This document shows, one piece after another, positions 1,195 through 5,882 of a stretch of 11,864 nt of DNA; position 1 is the first letter of the stretch, and each line of letters starts with the position of its first letter. Under the pieces are notes generated by a model. It did no database searches. It was not told the origin of the DNA and saw only the letters and a program-made list of their open reading frames with translations. The position numbers and the translations under genes were made by a program. The stretch comes from Nanobdellota archaeon (lineage in GTDB: Archaea > Nanobdellota > Nanobdellia > Pacearchaeales > GW2011-AR1), in contig JAHIWJ010000154.1 in the NCBI GenBank assembly GCA_018816205.1, positions 1 to 11,864 on the forward strand, read 5' to 3'.

Positions 1195-1208
1195 AATATT
1201 TAAGTATT
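1195..1208. promoter_or_regulatory. Near-palindromic TATA element shared by two divergent genes
   Basis: The element aatatttaagtatt reads almost the same on both strands (aatacttaaatatt). It is centred about 30 nt from the TTG of the membrane protein on one side and about 35 nt from the ATG of the fibre-like protein on the other. Archaeal transcription starts about 25 nt from the TATA centre, so both transcripts would have very short leaders. Its first 13 bases recur exactly at 3782-3794, before the second fibre-like gene. Promoter activity is inferred from position and base content only. Confidence 0.6.
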
Positions 1209-1236: not shown

Positions 1237-2409
1237 ATGACATACAAAACAGTTTCTGTTCTTGCATTTCTTGCAATATTCTTAATTCCATTTGCGAATG
1301 CAGTTGTTTCTCATGGTGCAAATCAAGTCTTTTTCTCAGACTCAGAAAGCTTGCAGTCAAAATTCACTTCAGGCGCGCTTGGCAAATGGCAGGGTACCAC
1401 CGATATTTACTACAACGGGGGAAATGTTGGGATTGGCACTGCGAGTCCTGCTGCAAAACTCGACGTAGACGGAGACACAGCAATTAGCAACGGCTACCTA
1501 ACTGTAACAAGATCTTCTGTAGGCAACAACGCGGCCCTTAATGTTCGCCAAACAGGCACGGGATTAATCGCAGAATTTGGAACACCTACTAATAATAATC
1601 TTGTTAACATCGATGCCAATGGCAACGTCGGCATTGGAACATCCGCTCCAGGGGCAAAACTAGAAGTCGCCGGACAAATTAAAATAACCGGGGGAAGTCC
1701 AGGAATTGGAAAAGTCTTAACATCTGATGCAAACGGTCTGGCGATGTGGCAAACTCTTTCTTCTGGAGGTTGGACAATTAACGGAAACAATATGTATTCA
1801 GCAGTCACGGGAAACGTCGGCATTGGAACGACGAATCCAGGGCAGAAGTTAGAGGTCGCTGGCTCAATCAAAGCCAAAGAATTAATAGACAGCGATGATT
1901 CAGCTTATTATGTCAACCCTAGCGGTGATTCGCTCTTTTCTGGCAGTATAGGAATCGGGACAACAGCCCCTCAAAAAAAATTACATGTGGTCGGAAACGC
2001 AGGGATAATTCGTATTGAAGGTAGCACGCATGCGTATATGGAATACTATCCATGGGGTAGCACAACCCGGGGGGCATATACCGGATTTCCAAGCAGTGGT
2101 AGCATCGACTTTAACATAGGTAATGAAGCTTATGAAGGGGATATTATTTTGACTCCTGGCGATAGTGCTGGTCCTGGCTCGCCAGTCGGAAGTGTAAAGA
2201 TTGAAAGGGGCTCATTATACCTCCCTAAAAGCGCTTCCAGTCCTTTTGCTTGTACATCCACAACTAAAGGAGCAATGTATTTTGATACCAGCGCAGGTTA
2301 TAACTCTGCTTGCACATGTATCCACGACGATTTCGTTAACGACTGGATATGGGCTTCTACCCAAAGGGAGGCCGGTACAGGTGTTGTTCATATACTTCAA
2401 TGTAATTAA
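1237..2409 (+). CDS. Secreted tail-fibre-like repeat protein (fibre protein A)
   Basis: This 390-residue protein has a signal peptide (hydrophobic core about 5-19, likely cleavage after ANA at residue 22). The mature chain begins VVSHGANQVFFSDSESL. Four copies of a G-N/S-V/I-GIGT-x-x-P-x-x-KL-x-V-x-G unit lie at residues 62-79, 129-146, 192-209 and 236-253. This unit is familiar from phage tail-fibre and other trimeric beta-fibre proteins. After the third copy comes DSDDSAYYVNPSGDS, another fibre-type motif. The last 60 residues are a different module with Cys339, Cys359, Cys361 and Cys389, matched by the gene at 3826. No virion, integrase or terminase genes lie nearby, so a cell-surface fibre or adhesin is likelier than a virus part. 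The ATG follows gagagg with no spacer, so translation may be effectively leaderless. Family assignment rests on repeats, not on a known homologue. Confidence 0.8.
   Translation: MTYKTVSVLAFLAIFLIPFANAVVSHGANQVFFSDSESLQSKFTSGALGKWQGTTDIYYNGGNVGIGTASPAAKLDVDGDTAISNGYLTVTRSSVGNNAALNVRQTGTGLIAEFGTPTNNNLVNIDANGNVGIGTSAPGAKLEVAGQIKITGGSPGIGKVLTSDANGLAMWQTLSSGGWTINGNNMYSAVTGNVGIGTTNPGQKLEVAGSIKAKELIDSDDSAYYVNPSGDSLFSGSIGIGTTAPQKKLHVVGNAGIIRIEGSTHAYMEYYPWGSTTRGAYTGFPSSGSIDFNIGNEAYEGDIILTPGDSAGPGSPVGSVKIERGSLYLPKSASSPFACTSTTKGAMYFDTSAGYNSACTCIHDDFVNDWIWASTQREAGTGVVHILQCN
1420..1995 (+). repeat. Four GNVGIGT-x-x-P-x-x-KL repeats inside fibre protein A
   Basis: The protein-level repeat units are encoded at about 1420-1473, 1621-1674, 1810-1863 and 1942-1995. 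Copies two and three are close in DNA (both contain aacgtcggcattggaac). Copies one and four have drifted in codon use. Spacing between copies shrinks from about 200 to 190 to 130 bases. The pattern suggests internal duplication of a fibre building block. Confidence 0.8.
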
Positions 2410-2420
2410 ATCTTCATAAA

Positions 2421-2442
2421 CCTCAGAACTTTAGTCTGAAGG
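2421..2442 (+). terminator. Possible stem-loop after fibre protein A
   Basis: Twelve bases after the stop codon, cctcaga pairs with tctgaagg around a seven-base loop, with one bulged A. There is no T run directly after it, so it may protect or process the 3' end of the mRNA rather than end transcription. The stem is short and could be chance. Confidence 0.3.
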
Positions 2443-2482
2443 GGATGCTGTTATCTAAATCTTTACTGACTGAAGTTAACTT

Positions 2483-2616
2483 TTAATCTGCCTTTACCTG
2501 TTGTCCCTGCAAACCCACATTTCCTATCTCATCGCCGACGTAAAACGACAGCTCACTGCATCATTCTCCATCTGGACAATAATCCTCTCGTAATCTGCCT
2601 GAACACCCTGCTGAAA
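2483..2616 (-). pseudogene. Probable remnant of a lost minus-strand gene
   Basis: The 321-base gap between fibre protein A and aIF2-beta has no intact gene. On the minus strand, one frame reads FQQGVQADYERIIVQMENDA with a stop just before it. A second frame continues SELSFYVGDEIGNVGLQGQ and then QVKAD and a stop at 2483-2485. Joined by one frame change near 2550, they give about 45 residues of protein-like sequence with a plausible beta-rich end. I do not recognise a family. It may be the C-terminus of a surface protein; chance is not excluded. Confidence 0.35.
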
Positions 2617-2701
2617 TCAACGACCCAGCCGCAGCACGCTGCAAAATAAAACAACTTAAGATAACATTCTATAATTCCAGCACCCCGACCTCGGCTAAAA
2701 C

Positions 2702-2710
2702 CTTATAAAC
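2702..2710 (+). promoter_or_regulatory. TATA box for aIF2-beta, leaderless start
   Basis: The box cttataaac is centred 25 nt upstream of the ATG at 2731, and no Shine-Dalgarno sequence lies between. This is the classic arrangement for an archaeal leaderless mRNA. Confidence 0.6.
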
Positions 2711-2730
2711 TCCAGTTTTATCCTCCTTCT

Positions 2731-3141
2731 ATGGAATCCTACGAACAACTCCTCGACAAAGCATACTCTCAAGTCAAAGTCGTAGAAGGTTCTTCCGAAA
2801 GATGCGAAATCCCGAAGGTAGAAGGCAATGTTACCGGGAACAACACATTCATCACAAACTTCGCCCAAATTGCAGATTGTCTGAGGAGGGACCCGCAGCA
2901 TCTGGCAAAATTCCTCCAAAAAGAACTCGCAGTTTCAGGCAGAGTCGACGGTGGAAGACTAATCCTAAAAACAAAACTCAACTCCTCAAAAGTAAACGAA
3001 AAAATAGAAAAATATTCCCATGAATTCGTCATCTGCCCGGTCTGCGGCAAACCCGACACCGAAGTCATTTCAGAAAAAGGAATTAAATACAAACACTGCC
3101 TTGCATGCGGCGCAAAAAGCCCGATAAAATACCATCTTTGA
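2731..3141 (+). CDS. Translation initiation factor 2 subunit beta (aIF2-beta)
   Basis: aIF2 brings methionyl initiator tRNA to the small ribosomal subunit as a GTP-dependent alpha-beta-gamma trimer; this is the beta subunit. The protein is 136 residues, normal for archaeal aIF2-beta. The N-terminal helix (MESYEQLLDKAYSQV) is the part that binds the gamma subunit in this family. The central alpha-beta core includes the family motif NFAQIADCLRRDPQHLAKFLQKEL (about 43-66) and GRLILKTKL. The C-terminal zinc ribbon has Cys102, Cys105, Cys123 and Cys126 (CPVC and CLAC), followed by GAKSPIKYHL. The start is supported by a TATA box 25 nt upstream. A DUF424 gene lies about 340 bases downstream on the same strand, separated by a broken ORF. 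Confidence 0.97.
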   Translation: MESYEQLLDKAYSQVKVVEGSSERCEIPKVEGNVTGNNTFITNFAQIADCLRRDPQHLAKFLQKELAVSGRVDGGRLILKTKLNSSKVNEKIEKYSHEFVICPVCGKPDTEVISEKGIKYKHCLACGAKSPIKYHL

Positions 3142-3191
3142 AACGCTTTCTGTAAAACAATCTTTGAATATTCCATTTGTCCAATAAGAAC

Positions 3192-3434
3192 ATGGCCGGG
3201 TATGCTGATGCAATTCAAGTTTTGAGACGTTTTGGTAGGGAACCAGAAAATTCCGCGAGATTTTTGTATGGTTCATATATTGCGCGACATGGGTGACAGG
3301 CCGACAGTGGTTATTCTTCCTCTCGTGGCAACTCTGAACAGCAGACCAATCGTATGGTGTCCTGTGAAAAAACGCCCTTAGACTTAGACATAACACATCT
3401 TCGTGGACTTACAATTCAAGATATGCTTCAATAA
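3192..3434 (+). pseudogene. Broken ORF of about 80 codons
   Basis: The 336-base gap between aIF2-beta and the DUF424 gene is not empty. From an ATG at 3192 the plus strand reads MAGYADAIQVLRRFGREPEN and then SARFLYGSYIARHG, to a TGA at 3294-3296. The same frame ends naturally at TAA 3432-3434 after LRGLTIQDMLQ. Between about 3289 and 3365 another frame carries MGDRPTVVILPLVATLNSRP and IVWCPVKKRP. A single protein could be restored by two compensating frame changes. I do not recognise the family. Either a small gene is decaying or the assembly has two indels. The in-frame TGA is not taken as recoded, because TGA is used as a normal stop by intact genes here. Confidence 0.45.
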
Positions 3435-3477
3435 GTTCCTGACCTAAAGATTTTTTAATCTGATTTTTATAATAAAT

Positions 3478-3777
3478 ATGATGTACCTAAAAGTCCACGA
3501 ATCCTACCGAAAAGTCGTTGCCCTCGCCGACTCAGAACTAATCGGAAAAACTTTCGAAGAAGGAAAGAAGCAGCTGTCCATAACAGAAAACTTCTACAAA
3601 GGCGACCTAATGGAAGAAGAAAAAGTTATAGAAGCCCTCAAGGACCTTGCGCTAGACGACGCAACTTTTAATATCGTAGGCAAAAAGTCGATAAATACTG
3701 CACTCAAGGCAGAAATCATAGCAAAAGAAATGATAGCAAAAGTCCAAGGCATCCCCTTTGCACTGGTTTTGTTATAA
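3478..3777 (+). CDS. DUF424 family protein
   Basis: This 99-residue protein fits the archaeal DUF424 pattern. LADSELIGKTFEEG (about 16-29) matches the family's CD-x-ELLGK-x-F-x-EG. ITENFYKGDLM (35-45) matches its FY-G segment. FNIVGKKSI (64-72) matches NLVGE-x-AV, and GIPFA (91-95) sits where the family has G-x-PHA. The two start codons are adjacent; the second ATG (3481) gives the usual family start MYLKVH. An A/T-rich box at 3451-3459 is 23-26 nt upstream, so the mRNA is probably leaderless. The molecular function is not established. Nearness to aIF2-beta hints at a translation link, but this is context only. Confidence 0.85.
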   Translation: MMYLKVHESYRKVVALADSELIGKTFEEGKKQLSITENFYKGDLMEEEKVIEALKDLALDDATFNIVGKKSINTALKAEIIAKEMIAKVQGIPFALVLL

Positions 3778-3780
3778 AAG

Positions 3781-3794
3781 AAATATTTAAGTAT
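3781..3794 (+). promoter_or_regulatory. Promoter of fibre protein B, matching that of fibre protein A
   Basis: The stretch aatatttaagtat at 3782-3794 is identical to 1195-1207 before the other fibre-like gene. The distance to the ATG is also alike (31 and 29 nt between). A shared TATA plus flanking bases suggests joint control by the same factors. Part of the match is simply the TATA consensus. Confidence 0.6.
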
Positions 3795-3825
3795 CCTAAA
3801 ATTCTTACTCTTTTGATAAAAAGAG

Positions 3826-4794
3826 ATGGACATTCATATACACATTGAAAAAAAACATTTTGTAGGTTTCTTAGTGATATTGGGATTGATACTTGGAACT
3901 GGTGTAACTTACGCCGTTGTTTCTCATGGGGCCGATCAAGTATTTTTTTCAGACGGAAGCAGCCTTGCGGGCCTTGTAGCCGGCGGAGCACAAATCTGCA
4001 CCAGTGCACTTTCCGGAGACACTAATTGCATTGATGCAGTAGGAATTACCACAGAGACTGATCCCACAGTTCCAGCAGGAATCAAAGACGGAATTACTTG
4101 GACAGAGGTCTCCAATAGGCCTGCCGGATTGGATGATGGAGATCAAGTCGGAATTACTTCAGAAACAGATCCGCAGGTAGATTCAGTCGTAAACGCAAGA
4201 ATTTGCCAAGGAGATGCCAATGGATATGTTGACTGCAATCTTGTTCAAGACGCCAGCGGAGACTGCGGTGCAGGATATGTCTGCATAGGGGGCCATGATC
4301 ATGATTCAAGATATTACACAGAGGCCGAGTCTAACACAAATTACGTCAACGCCGTAGGAGACACAATGACCGGAGGTTTGCTAATATCCGGCGGCAGCTT
4401 CGAAGTAGCAGGCGGCAATACTCGCTTAGACAATTATGTTTACATTACTGACTACGATGGCGAAAGCGCAAGCGAAGACGTTAGCATGATTGCAAGAGAC
4501 GGTAACTTACAACACCGGAGCGGTGGGGTTGTAATAGGTTCATATGCCAACGGAGATGCGACAGTTGGAGCATTAGACACCGGAGATTTATTAGTAAAAG
4601 ACTCACTCATAGCCCAAGGATACTTCAGACTGCCTGTGCGTTCAGGCAACCCATTCAATTGTAACATGAACACTGTGGGTTATGCCTACGTGGACACAAC
4701 AAGCGTAGACACAATCTGCTTATGCGCGGATATAGCCGGAGGAGGATGGGCCTGGATAGACATAAGCAACCCGAGCGGCCCTGCTTGTACATAA
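3826..4794 (+). CDS. Secreted tail-fibre-like protein (fibre protein B)
   Basis: This 322-residue protein starts with a charged stretch (MDIHIHIEKKH), then a hydrophobic core at 13-28 and a likely cleavage after TYA at residue 30. The mature chain begins VVSHGADQVFFSDGSSL, nearly the same as fibre protein A. Two GIT-T/S-ETDP units lie at 73-80 and 109-116, around WTEVSNRPAGLDDGDQVG, a motif seen in bacterial and phage fibre proteins. HDHDSRYYTEAESN at 157-170 followed by AVGDTMTGGLL (176-186) is typical of phage tail-fibre shafts. The C-terminal module (about 270-322) has Cys279, Cys298, Cys300 and Cys321, with the CxC spacing found in fibre protein A, and a Trp-rich WAWID. Probably a trimeric fibre exposed outside the cell. 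It could serve adhesion to a host or neighbour cell; that role is inferred. Confidence 0.8.
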   Translation: MDIHIHIEKKHFVGFLVILGLILGTGVTYAVVSHGADQVFFSDGSSLAGLVAGGAQICTSALSGDTNCIDAVGITTETDPTVPAGIKDGITWTEVSNRPAGLDDGDQVGITSETDPQVDSVVNARICQGDANGYVDCNLVQDASGDCGAGYVCIGGHDHDSRYYTEAESNTNYVNAVGDTMTGGLLISGGSFEVAGGNTRLDNYVYITDYDGESASEDVSMIARDGNLQHRSGGVVIGSYANGDATVGALDTGDLLVKDSLIAQGYFRLPVRSGNPFNCNMNTVGYAYVDTTSVDTICLCADIAGGGWAWIDISNPSGPACT

Positions 4795-4883: not shown

Positions 4884-5429
4884 ATGGAAAATTTCTACAT
4901 AAAAAGAATCCAAGATGTCAAAAAAAACCTAAAAGAACTAAAAGAAAAACTGAACGTAAAAGTAACAATTCAAAAAAACCAACTAACCATTGAAGGCGGA
5001 ACAATAGAAGAATTCGACGCCTCGCGAGTTTTCGAAGCAATTGCCTTCGGTTTCTCGGTAAAAAAAGCTCTCCCCTTAAAAGATGAAGACTATCAATTCA
5101 GAACTGTCCACATAAAAGACCACACACGAAGAAACCTCGCAGACATAAAGTCCCGACTAATCGGAAAGAAAGGCAAAACCCGAAGAGTTTTCGCTGACAC
5201 CTCTGGTTGCGAAATCCTCATCACCGAGACAGAAGTTGGAATAATCGGCCTAGTTGAAGACGTCGAAAACGCAGAAACCGCAATCATCCACCTCATCAAA
5301 GGCTCAAAGCAAACAAACATGTACCGATTTCTAGAAAAACAAAACGCAATAAAAAAAGAAAACACCTCTTTTCCAGACTTAAATCAAGTCTCGCACAGTC
5401 AAACCGTGCACGAAAAAGAAAAGAAGTAA
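4884..5429 (+). CDS. KH-domain RNA-binding protein, archaeal Dim2/Krr1 (Pno1) type
   Basis: This 181-residue protein has two KH-like domains. The first (about 4-65) is degenerate and lacks a clear GxxG loop; it includes VKVTIQKNQLTIEGG. The second (about 70-140) has the RNA-binding loop in IKSRLIGKKGKTRRVFADT, with GKKG at 94-97, followed by CEILI and the helix AETAIIHLIKG. The segment KQTNMYRFLEK after it matches the HxxVYxFLE end of archaeal Dim2 proteins. The family binds the 3' part of 16S rRNA during small-subunit maturation, and the archaeal member is reported to work with aIF2-alpha. A polar tail from about 150 is likely disordered. ATG at 4884 is chosen over TTG 4878 because of the TATA spacing. 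Confidence 0.88.
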   Translation: MENFYIKRIQDVKKNLKELKEKLNVKVTIQKNQLTIEGGTIEEFDASRVFEAIAFGFSVKKALPLKDEDYQFRTVHIKDHTRRNLADIKSRLIGKKGKTRRVFADTSGCEILITETEVGIIGLVEDVENAETAIIHLIKGSKQTNMYRFLEKQNAIKKENTSFPDLNQVSHSQTVHEKEKK

Positions 5430-5730: not shown

Positions 5731-5882
5731 GTCCCCGTAGCTCAGCGGTTAGAGCGCACGGCTGTTAGTGCGAGAAAACATAATCGAGCGCGTTGGCAAT
5801 GTCAAAGTACGCAAACGTTCGTTCGAGCGTATGAAACGTAACAGCGACCGTGAGGTCGCAGGTCCGAATCCTGTCGGGGACG
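5731..5882 (+). tRNA. tRNA-Asn (anticodon GTT) with a 79-nt intron
   Basis: The acceptor arms gtccccg (5731-5737) and cggggac (5875-5881) pair fully. The D arm is gctc-agcggtta-gagc (5740-5755). The anticodon stem cacgg (5757-5761) pairs with ccgtg (5848-5852) across an insertion. The loop is ctgtta plus a, with anticodon gtt at 5764-5766. The variable loop is aggtc, and the T arm is gcagg-tccgaat-cctgt (5858-5874). The discriminator is G at 5882, as usual for tRNA-Asn; CCA is not encoded. A T run (5883-5887) follows directly and probably ends transcription. The T loop has C at position 55, where U (pseudouridine) is nearly universal, giving gtccg instead of gttcg. All stems pair, so the gene looks functional. 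Confidence 0.93.
5768..5846 (+). other. Intron of tRNA-Asn, archaeal bulge-helix-bulge type
   Basis: The insertion lies at the canonical place, after position 37. At the junctions ctgtt (5762-5766) pairs with aacag (5840-5844), leaving three-base bulges on each side (agt and cga). This is the bulge-helix-bulge form cut by archaeal tRNA endonuclease. The exact cut could shift by one base. Inside are two hairpins: gcgttggc-aat-gtcaa plus agtacgc at about 5798-5813, and acgttcg with cgagcgt at about 5814-5830. Archaeal tRNA introns are often shorter than this. Confidence 0.8.

What the first reader, a model, noticed from the sequence alone, without database searches (positions are those of the whole stretch)
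1237..4794. A pair of tail-fibre-like secreted proteins with a shared plan among translation genes
Fibre proteins A (1237-2409) and B (3826-4794) share the mature N-terminus VVSHGA-x-QVFFSD, a C-terminal module with four matching Cys (spacings 20/2/28 and 19/2/21) and a 13-nt identical promoter core. Their middle parts differ: four GNVGIGT repeats in A, and GIT-ETDP plus HDHDSRYYTEAE motifs in B. A common end-cap with exchangeable shafts suggests a modular surface fibre system, perhaps for attachment to a host or partner cell in a reduced archaeon. No phage genes accompany them.
Basis: partly seen in the sequence, partly recalled or inferred. Interest (0 to 1): 0.75.

Follow-up and report, generated by a model that had tools for sequence, protein, structure and literature searches.

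The report
Mosaic surface fibres in a Pacearchaeote
A small archaeon carries two genes for secreted, phage-tail-fibre-like proteins that keep the same front end but have different shafts, and close relatives carry rearranged versions of them, so they look like swappable hooks for touching other cells.

Summary
Both genes are real. A (390 aa) and B (322 aa) are exported, repeat-built fibre proteins with the same 5' module (promoter core, signal segment, N-cap; N-cap DNA 37/45 identical), unrelated shafts and a distantly related four-Cys tip. A's shaft matches Bdellovibrio mosaic adhesive trimers (MATs) by sequence (8ond, E 2e-7) and, weakly, by fold (first 15 of 22 PDB matches). B's shaft joins a bacterial secreted-protein module to a T4-type long-tail-fibre piece. 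Neither has S74, the MAT N-domain or recognised phage neighbours.

New here: in a named same-genus Pacearchaeote one fibre, at B's exact position, joins an A-like shaft to the same N-cap and tip. In G170 the N-cap carries another C-terminus. In G164 contigs of two fibre loci share 24-mers at both sides of a gap, as expected for a collapsed shared segment with different tips. The N-cap is one form of an uncatalogued module found in 19 of 279 genomes of the phylum.

Best reading: trimeric cell-surface adhesive fibres diversified by module exchange; they work like MATs but are not members. Trimerization, display and binding are inferred. The site is not a family-wide fibre hotspot.

The parts
1195..1207 (+). 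13-nt promoter core AATATTTAAGTAT (TATA-like) before A
   Evidence: identical at 3782; longer form also before the fibre genes of G169 and G164-C13
1237..2409 (+). fibre protein A, 390 aa: signal segment ~1-22, N-cap ~23-49, shaft ~57-320, four-Cys tip 324-390 (boundaries by eye)
   Evidence: Bdellovibrio MAT matches
1300..1383 (+). N-cap of A (instance of the SH/GH...LQxAI module)
   Evidence: (E 5e-11; its own sequence is a row of the profile)
1420..1962 (+). span of the four shaft motifs GNVGIGT x3 and GSIGIGT of A
   Evidence: residues 62, 129, 192, 236
2206..2406 (+). four-Cys tip of A
   Evidence: alignment with B and G169; Cys 339, 359, 361, 389
3782..3794 (+). 13-nt promoter core before B
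3826..4794 (+). fibre protein B, 322 aa: N-terminal signal or anchor ~1-29, N-cap, ETDP/IKDGI module, T4-like long-tail-fibre piece, four-Cys tip
3913..3996 (+). N-cap of B
   Evidence: (E 8.6e-9; its own sequence is a row of the profile)
4036..4158 (+). GITxETDP...IKDGITWTEVSNRPAGLDDGDQVGIT module of B, shared with bacterial secreted proteins
   Evidence: local identities up to 74%
4207..4410 (+). long-tail-fibre distal-subunit-like piece of B (HDHDSRYYTEAE...VGDTMTGG)
   Evidence: PHROG 21722 E 2.1e-9; Vibrio phage long tail fibres
4612..4791 (+). four-Cys tip of B
2731..3141 (+). aIF2-beta (flank of A; not part of the fibre system)
   Evidence: TIGR00311
3478..3777 (+). DUF424 gene, upstream flank of the B site
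   Evidence: PF04242 E 1.4e-19
4884..5429 (+). arCOG04150 KH protein, downstream flank of the B site
   Evidence: TIGR03665 E 4.7e-32, 111.1 bits, just under its cut-off of 114.2

Best explanation
A and B are exported trimeric fibres that a Pacearchaeote shows on its surface to bind a partner or host cell (or a substratum). A constant 5' module gives expression, export and seating at the cell surface. Behind it sit interchangeable beta-rich shafts and a C-terminal tip that does the binding. Variety arises when recombination between fibre loci, and import of shaft modules from bacteria or phages, makes new combinations. Shown: the ORFs, shared ends, different middles, shaft similarity to MAT and phage fibres, the same genomic position holding different fibres in two congeners, and conflicting relationships of N-cap and shaft. 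Inferred: trimerization, cell-surface retention, tip-forward orientation, binding, the direction of module transfer, and the identity of any partner.
For: N-terminal hydrophobic segments followed by the conserved N-cap. A's shaft vs Bdellovibrio MAT fibres: 8ond E 2e-7, 8ojn 0.0035, 8oml 0.019; the G169 fibre also hits 8ol4, E 3.6e-6 (Bd2439). Foldseek of the weak A model: ranks 1-15 of 22 PDB matches are Bdellovibrio MAT chains, best E 0.0023. PHROG tail-fibre hits for both; phage tblastn matches in 10 records for A and 47 for B. G169 fibre at the DUF424-KH position with the same promoter, an N-cap, an A-like first shaft segment (29/35 aa, 79/105 nt) and the four-Cys tip. Conflict: A's N-cap is nearer to B's (37/45 nt) than to G169's (25/45), while A's shaft start is nearer to G169's. 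G164: contigs C5 (after DUF424) and C13 (after aRF1) end in the same 24-mer inside the N-cap; C6 and reverse C15 begin with the same 24-mer and then differ in shaft and tip. Another C-terminus behind the N-cap in G170.
Against: No model of good confidence: A monomer pLDDT 57, pTM 0.26; tip pLDDT 62, no fold match at E <= 0.001. The G164 repeat itself is not in the assembly, so its length and identity are inferred; G164 could also mix strains. Of 9 genus genomes with DUF424, 6 have nothing in the DUF424-KH gap, so a fibre there is dispensable. 20 of the 38 wide family gaps were read and none holds a fibre. The four-Cys tip with the N-cap was found together only in the own genome and G169. No expression or binding data.
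Confidence: 0.6

Rival explanations
1. They are tail or receptor fibres of an archaeal virus or a decayed provirus in the chromosome.
For: Shafts resemble phage tail fibres.
Against: Both have N-terminal export-type segments and sit among conserved translation genes; the genes around the B site keep their order in G169. No virion gene was recognised among the window genes scanned. N-cap and tip patterns matched 4 and 26 stretches in the viral contigs and none was confirmed.
Confidence: 0.08
2. They are not cell-cell adhesins but structural or housekeeping surface proteins: S-layer appendages, matrix, or anchors to mineral surfaces.
For: The same shaft type occurs in many bacteria and in 68 of 181 genomes of this family. 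The N-cap module also heads non-fibre secreted proteins.
Against: C-termini differ between close relatives while the N-cap stays, expected of recognition proteins rather than structural ones. Among the closest solved relatives, the MAT Bd2439 binds glycans of a prey (PMC10769870).
Confidence: 0.24
3. A and B are ordinary recent duplicates that diverged in the middle, with no module exchange.
For: Same promoter, N-cap and tip family within one contig.
Against: The middles have unrelated homologues (bacterial ETDP module and T4 long-tail-fibre piece against MAT-like repeats). A's first shaft segment is like that of G169, and B has no counterpart. N-caps (13/15 aa) are far more alike than tips (14/40 aa).
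Confidence: 0.08

Closest known systems
Mosaic adhesive trimers (MATs) of Bdellovibrio bacteriovorus (Bd2133, Bd3182, Bd2439; PDB 8ond, 8onc, 8ol4; PMC10769870)
   Same: Secreted fibres; GNVGIGT/PxxKLxVxG shaft repeats of A and G169 alignable to MAT fibres; constant N-end and variable C-termini; more than one per genome
   Different: Archaeal; 322-538 aa for the five read here rather than ~1000; no ~130-aa N-terminal beta domain (first A shaft motif at residue 62, about 40 aa after the signal); no S74; four-Cys tip without a PDB sequence match; two N-capped fibres plus one uncapped shaft protein found in this genome rather than 21
Caudoviral tail fibres (beta-helix fibres with endosialidase chaperone; T4-type long tail fibre distal subunit)
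   Same: A's shaft (cyanophage, Thermus phage and other records) and B's HDSRYYTEAE...GDTMTGG piece (Vibrio phages)
   Different: N-terminal export-type segment; no virion genes recognised; no S74 chaperone; chromosomal setting
Bacterial secreted proteins with the ETDP/IKDGI module, 'tail fiber domain' or Shufflon_N
   Same: ETDPxVPxxIKDGIxW module of B; the G170 fibre has a weak Shufflon_N match (E 7.9e-6, 26 bits, below its cut-off of 27.5)
   Different: No curated family above cut-off in A or B; I saw no recombinase gene next to A or B among the named neighbours, without a dedicated search
Secreted proteins of this archaeal phylum with the GH...LQxAI module (uncatalogued; e.g. loci L108, L109, L116, L126)
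   Same: N-caps of A, B, G169 and G170 align with it
   Different: There it is often in 2-3 copies on non-fibre proteins; in A and B a single copy before a fibre shaft

Membership tests
MAT (mosaic adhesive trimer) | shaft of MAT beta-helix repeats | tested here: met
   A: 8ond E 2e-7; G169 fibre: 8ond 9.1e-8, 8ol4 3.6e-6. Not met for B: no MAT match at E <= 1.
MAT (mosaic adhesive trimer) | conserved ~130-aa beta-rich domain straight after the signal peptide (all 21 MATs, PMC10769870 section 10) | tested here: not met
   Tested by length only: about 40 residues lie between the signal segment and the first A shaft motif; a ~28-31-aa module sits there. No MAT N-domain sequence was compared.
MAT (mosaic adhesive trimer) | C-terminal S74 domain (13 of 21) or another tip (8 of 21) | tested here: inconclusive
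   No PF13884 in A or B at E <= 1; the four-Cys tip has no PDB sequence match at E <= 10 and no fold match at E <= 0.001.
MAT (mosaic adhesive trimer) | trimeric, on the cell surface | not testable with these tools
   only monomer prediction available; pLDDT 57
Caudoviral tail fibre | encoded with virion genes | tested here: not met
   window neighbours scanned are cellular; caps not confirmed in viral contigs
Caudoviral tail fibre | fibre-shaft sequence similarity | tested here: met
   PHROG 9942 E 1.6e-14 (A), 21722 E 2.1e-9 (B)
GH...LQxAI module of this archaeal phylum | [SG]HxAxx[VI]...LQxAIxxG after an N-terminal hydrophobic segment | tested here: met
   own sequences are rows of the profile, so their own scores are not independent; B's copy reads SLAGLV, so LQxAI is degenerate there
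Pfam or NCBIfam family | any curated model above cut-off for A or B | tested here: not met

The most novel reading that the evidence does not exclude
Pacearchaeota have a host-recognition system built like a recombining cassette set: a widespread N-terminal display module seats fibres at the cell surface, a few loci near the aRF1/MCM/aIF2-beta/DUF424/KH cluster hold them, and recombination between loci keeps the display end alike within a genome while shuffling shafts and tips, so that lineages switch partners. This would be the archaeal counterpart of Bdellovibrio MATs and of phage host-range switching.
Probability: 0.3. Interest if true: 0.8.

Novelty: new variant of a known kind. Interest (0 to 1): 0.56.

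Why it matters
How DPANN archaea recognise their hosts is largely open. These genes give specific, expressible candidates with a solved bacterial analogue that binds prey glycans, and a testable rule: constant display end, exchangeable shaft and tip. They also expose an uncatalogued surface-protein module that could be used to list candidate contact proteins across the phylum.

Tried and rejected
Family-wide hotspot: rejected. From the capped listings I entered 148 DUF424 and 150 KH genomes, one place each (second copies in G171 and G128 dropped; G171's second set on C37, L064, shows no fibre). 131 have both, 119 on one contig: median gap 550 bp, 38 of 119 at 900 bp or more, own and G169 among them. 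I fetched 20 of the other 36; a motif scan found no fibre ORF (one chance motif, L138); an aIF1A-like gene is there in many (named by eye). In the genus, DUF424 is in 9 of 10 genomes (not G165), on one contig with KH in 8, and the gap is 34-270 bp in 6 of those 8.

Virus origin: weakened and the neighbours. Foreign composition: GC of A 45.0%, B 47.2% against 39.0-46.0% for nine neighbours; GC3 36.3 and 40.2 against 38.3-48.7: slight, not used.

Structure: models of A and of the tip are weak; the tip fold search gave nothing at E <= 0.001 in PDB or BFVD. My first tip expression was wrong and was redone (4 of 137 hit proteins; P0001 and P0018 are B and A themselves, P0041 contains the G169 fibre; only P0016 is other). 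The nt comparison of the G164 24-mer with A, B and G169 was out of frame and is not used. The pattern search for the collapsed G164 block found only the two contig ends.
Full report
WHAT IS THERE. The window is contig C141 of a 1.08-Mb, 72%-complete genome. The contig of one congener, G169, is identical to a record named Candidatus Pacearchaeota archaeon RIFCSPHIGHO2_01_FULL_39_44. Genes A and B lie among aIF2-beta, DUF424, an arCOG04150 KH protein, MnmA, a nitroreductase and FtsZ, with a long tRNA gene. A and B share a promoter core, an N-terminal hydrophobic segment and an N-cap, and, more distantly, a four-Cys tip; their middles do not match.

SHAFTS. A's middle is a beta-fibre repeat (GNVGIGTxxPxxKLxVxG). 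Its only PDB sequence relatives at E <= 0.1 are three Bdellovibrio MAT sequences. A low-confidence model gives MAT chains as the first 15 of 22 PDB matches, none at E <= 0.001. 3842 of 7818 scored candidates match A at E <= 0.001; of the 120 listed, most align over well under 60% of A. B's middle has two parts: an ETDP/IKDGI module of bacterial secreted proteins (17 hits, one of them B itself) and a piece like T4-type long tail fibre distal subunits. In the archaeal family 68 of 181 genomes have an A-type match at E <= 0.01 but only 8 of 181 a B-type match at E <= 0.1, five of them no better than 0.009; both counts include the own genome. The own genome has a third GNVGIGT protein, without these caps by eye, on contig C10.

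THE ENDS. G169 has one fibre with N-cap, A-like shaft and four-Cys tip. The N-cap profile (rows: A, B, G169, G170) hit 32 of 200 genomes of the order at E <= 0.01; beyond its own rows the best are G068 (2.5e-6), G180 (1.2e-5) and G164 (1.4e-5), and many of the rest are near 1e-3 and not checked one by one. The tip profile (rows: A, B, G169) hit 8 of 200, with G038, G057 and G029 at about 1e-4. The N-cap hits lead to a broader module, [SG]H-x-A...LQ-x-AI, one to three copies after an export-type segment. A 13-row profile found it in 19 of 279 genomes drawn from the phylum, in six families; own, G169 and G068 had rows in that profile, so 16 are independent. G164 was among the 260 without a match; its N-cap is cut by the contig end. 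Four proteins with the module have no Pfam or NCBIfam family above cut-off. A last protein search with three copies gave 14 hits; the two with an organism label are 'archaeon'.

EXCHANGE. (1) Position: the DUF424-KH gap holds B in the own genome, a different fibre in G169, and in G164 a fibre start 33 bp after DUF424 that runs into the contig end; the gap is 34-270 bp in 6 of 8 same-contig genomes of the genus. (2) A second site lies between aRF1 and MCM: fibres in G170 and, without a match to the N-cap profile, in G171; none in G166 and G172 (G172 genes named by eye); G164-C13 shows an N-cap after aRF1 at a contig end. A itself sits before aIF2-beta; in the seven congeners where aIF2-beta was seen (G164, G166-G168, G170-G172) no fibre lies directly upstream, though in G168 a run of N/Y-rich repeat proteins lies nearby. 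(3) Conflict: N-cap A-B 37/45 nt against A-G169 25/45, but first shaft segment A-G169 79/105 nt and 29/35 aa. (4) G164: two contigs end in one 24-mer, two begin with another, differing beyond. The simplest reading is one block shared by two fibre loci with different 5' ends and different tips. The block is absent from the assembly, so this is an inference.

MECHANISM. Export by the signal segment; seating by the N-cap; a trimeric beta shaft; a tip that binds. Trimerization is inferred from the MAT and phage relatives only. In MATs the N-domain is constant, tips are swapped, and one tip binds glycans of a prey (PMC10769870: abstract, passages and sections 10, 12 and 16 seen).

LITERATURE. 'Pacearchaeota' with 'tail fiber' gave one paper, PMC11329633, which reports tail-fibre-like 'antennae' on AS-7 (host) cells (passages seen). 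'DPANN' with 'tail fiber' gave 6 papers (listing only). 'GNVGIGT' gave none. Searches pairing 'mosaic adhesive trimer' with archaea, DPANN or symbiosis terms showed 10 of 764 and 5 of 188 papers, none of those shown holding the MAT term. I therefore found no report of MAT-like fibres in DPANN in this open-licence library; subscription papers were not searched.

VERDICT. Real and coherent; a new archaeal variant of mosaic fibre adhesins. Function is inferred from homology and pattern, not shown. On rechecking I lowered confidence slightly (0.62 to 0.60) because G171 lacks the N-cap by profile, and raised the structural-role rival to 0.24.

Noticed in passing
window 5731-5882: tRNA gene of 152 bp by Rfam (52.6 bits) that ARAGORN does not report; the extra length looks like a long intron in the anticodon arm.
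   Followed up: partly
L061 1722-11090 (G168): Run of N/Y-rich repeat proteins (YNQT/YNET repeats) and further long ORFs upstream of aIF2-beta, apparently another surface protein family near the place where A sits in the window.
   Followed up: no
L057 14055-15569 and L059 7653-9179: aRF1 of G171 and G166 is about 140 aa longer than in G164 and G170 and matches the family in two stretches, so it may hold a small insertion or mini-intein; the G171 MCM (1127 aa) carries an intein-like insert.
   Followed up: no
L011 4779-7836 (own contig C10): Third GNVGIGT protein (332 aa) directly downstream of a 688-aa putative matrixin-like metalloprotease (Peptidase_M10 E 4.5e-4, below cut-off).
   Followed up: partly
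L050 7306-7809 and L057 13153-13650: Similar small membrane-protein genes (167 and 165 aa, likeness by eye) divergent from the fibre gene in both G170 and G171.
   Followed up: no
G032:C1 about 82-94 kb and 156 kb (L054): A single-contig 0.5-Mb genome with 15 matches to A at E <= 0.01, many in one cluster: a possible large fibre repertoire.
   Followed up: no
L116, L118, L121, L123, L126: Proteins with tandem GH...LQxAI-like modules, several followed by varied Cys-rich or repeat ends, from different genomes of the phylum.
   Followed up: partly
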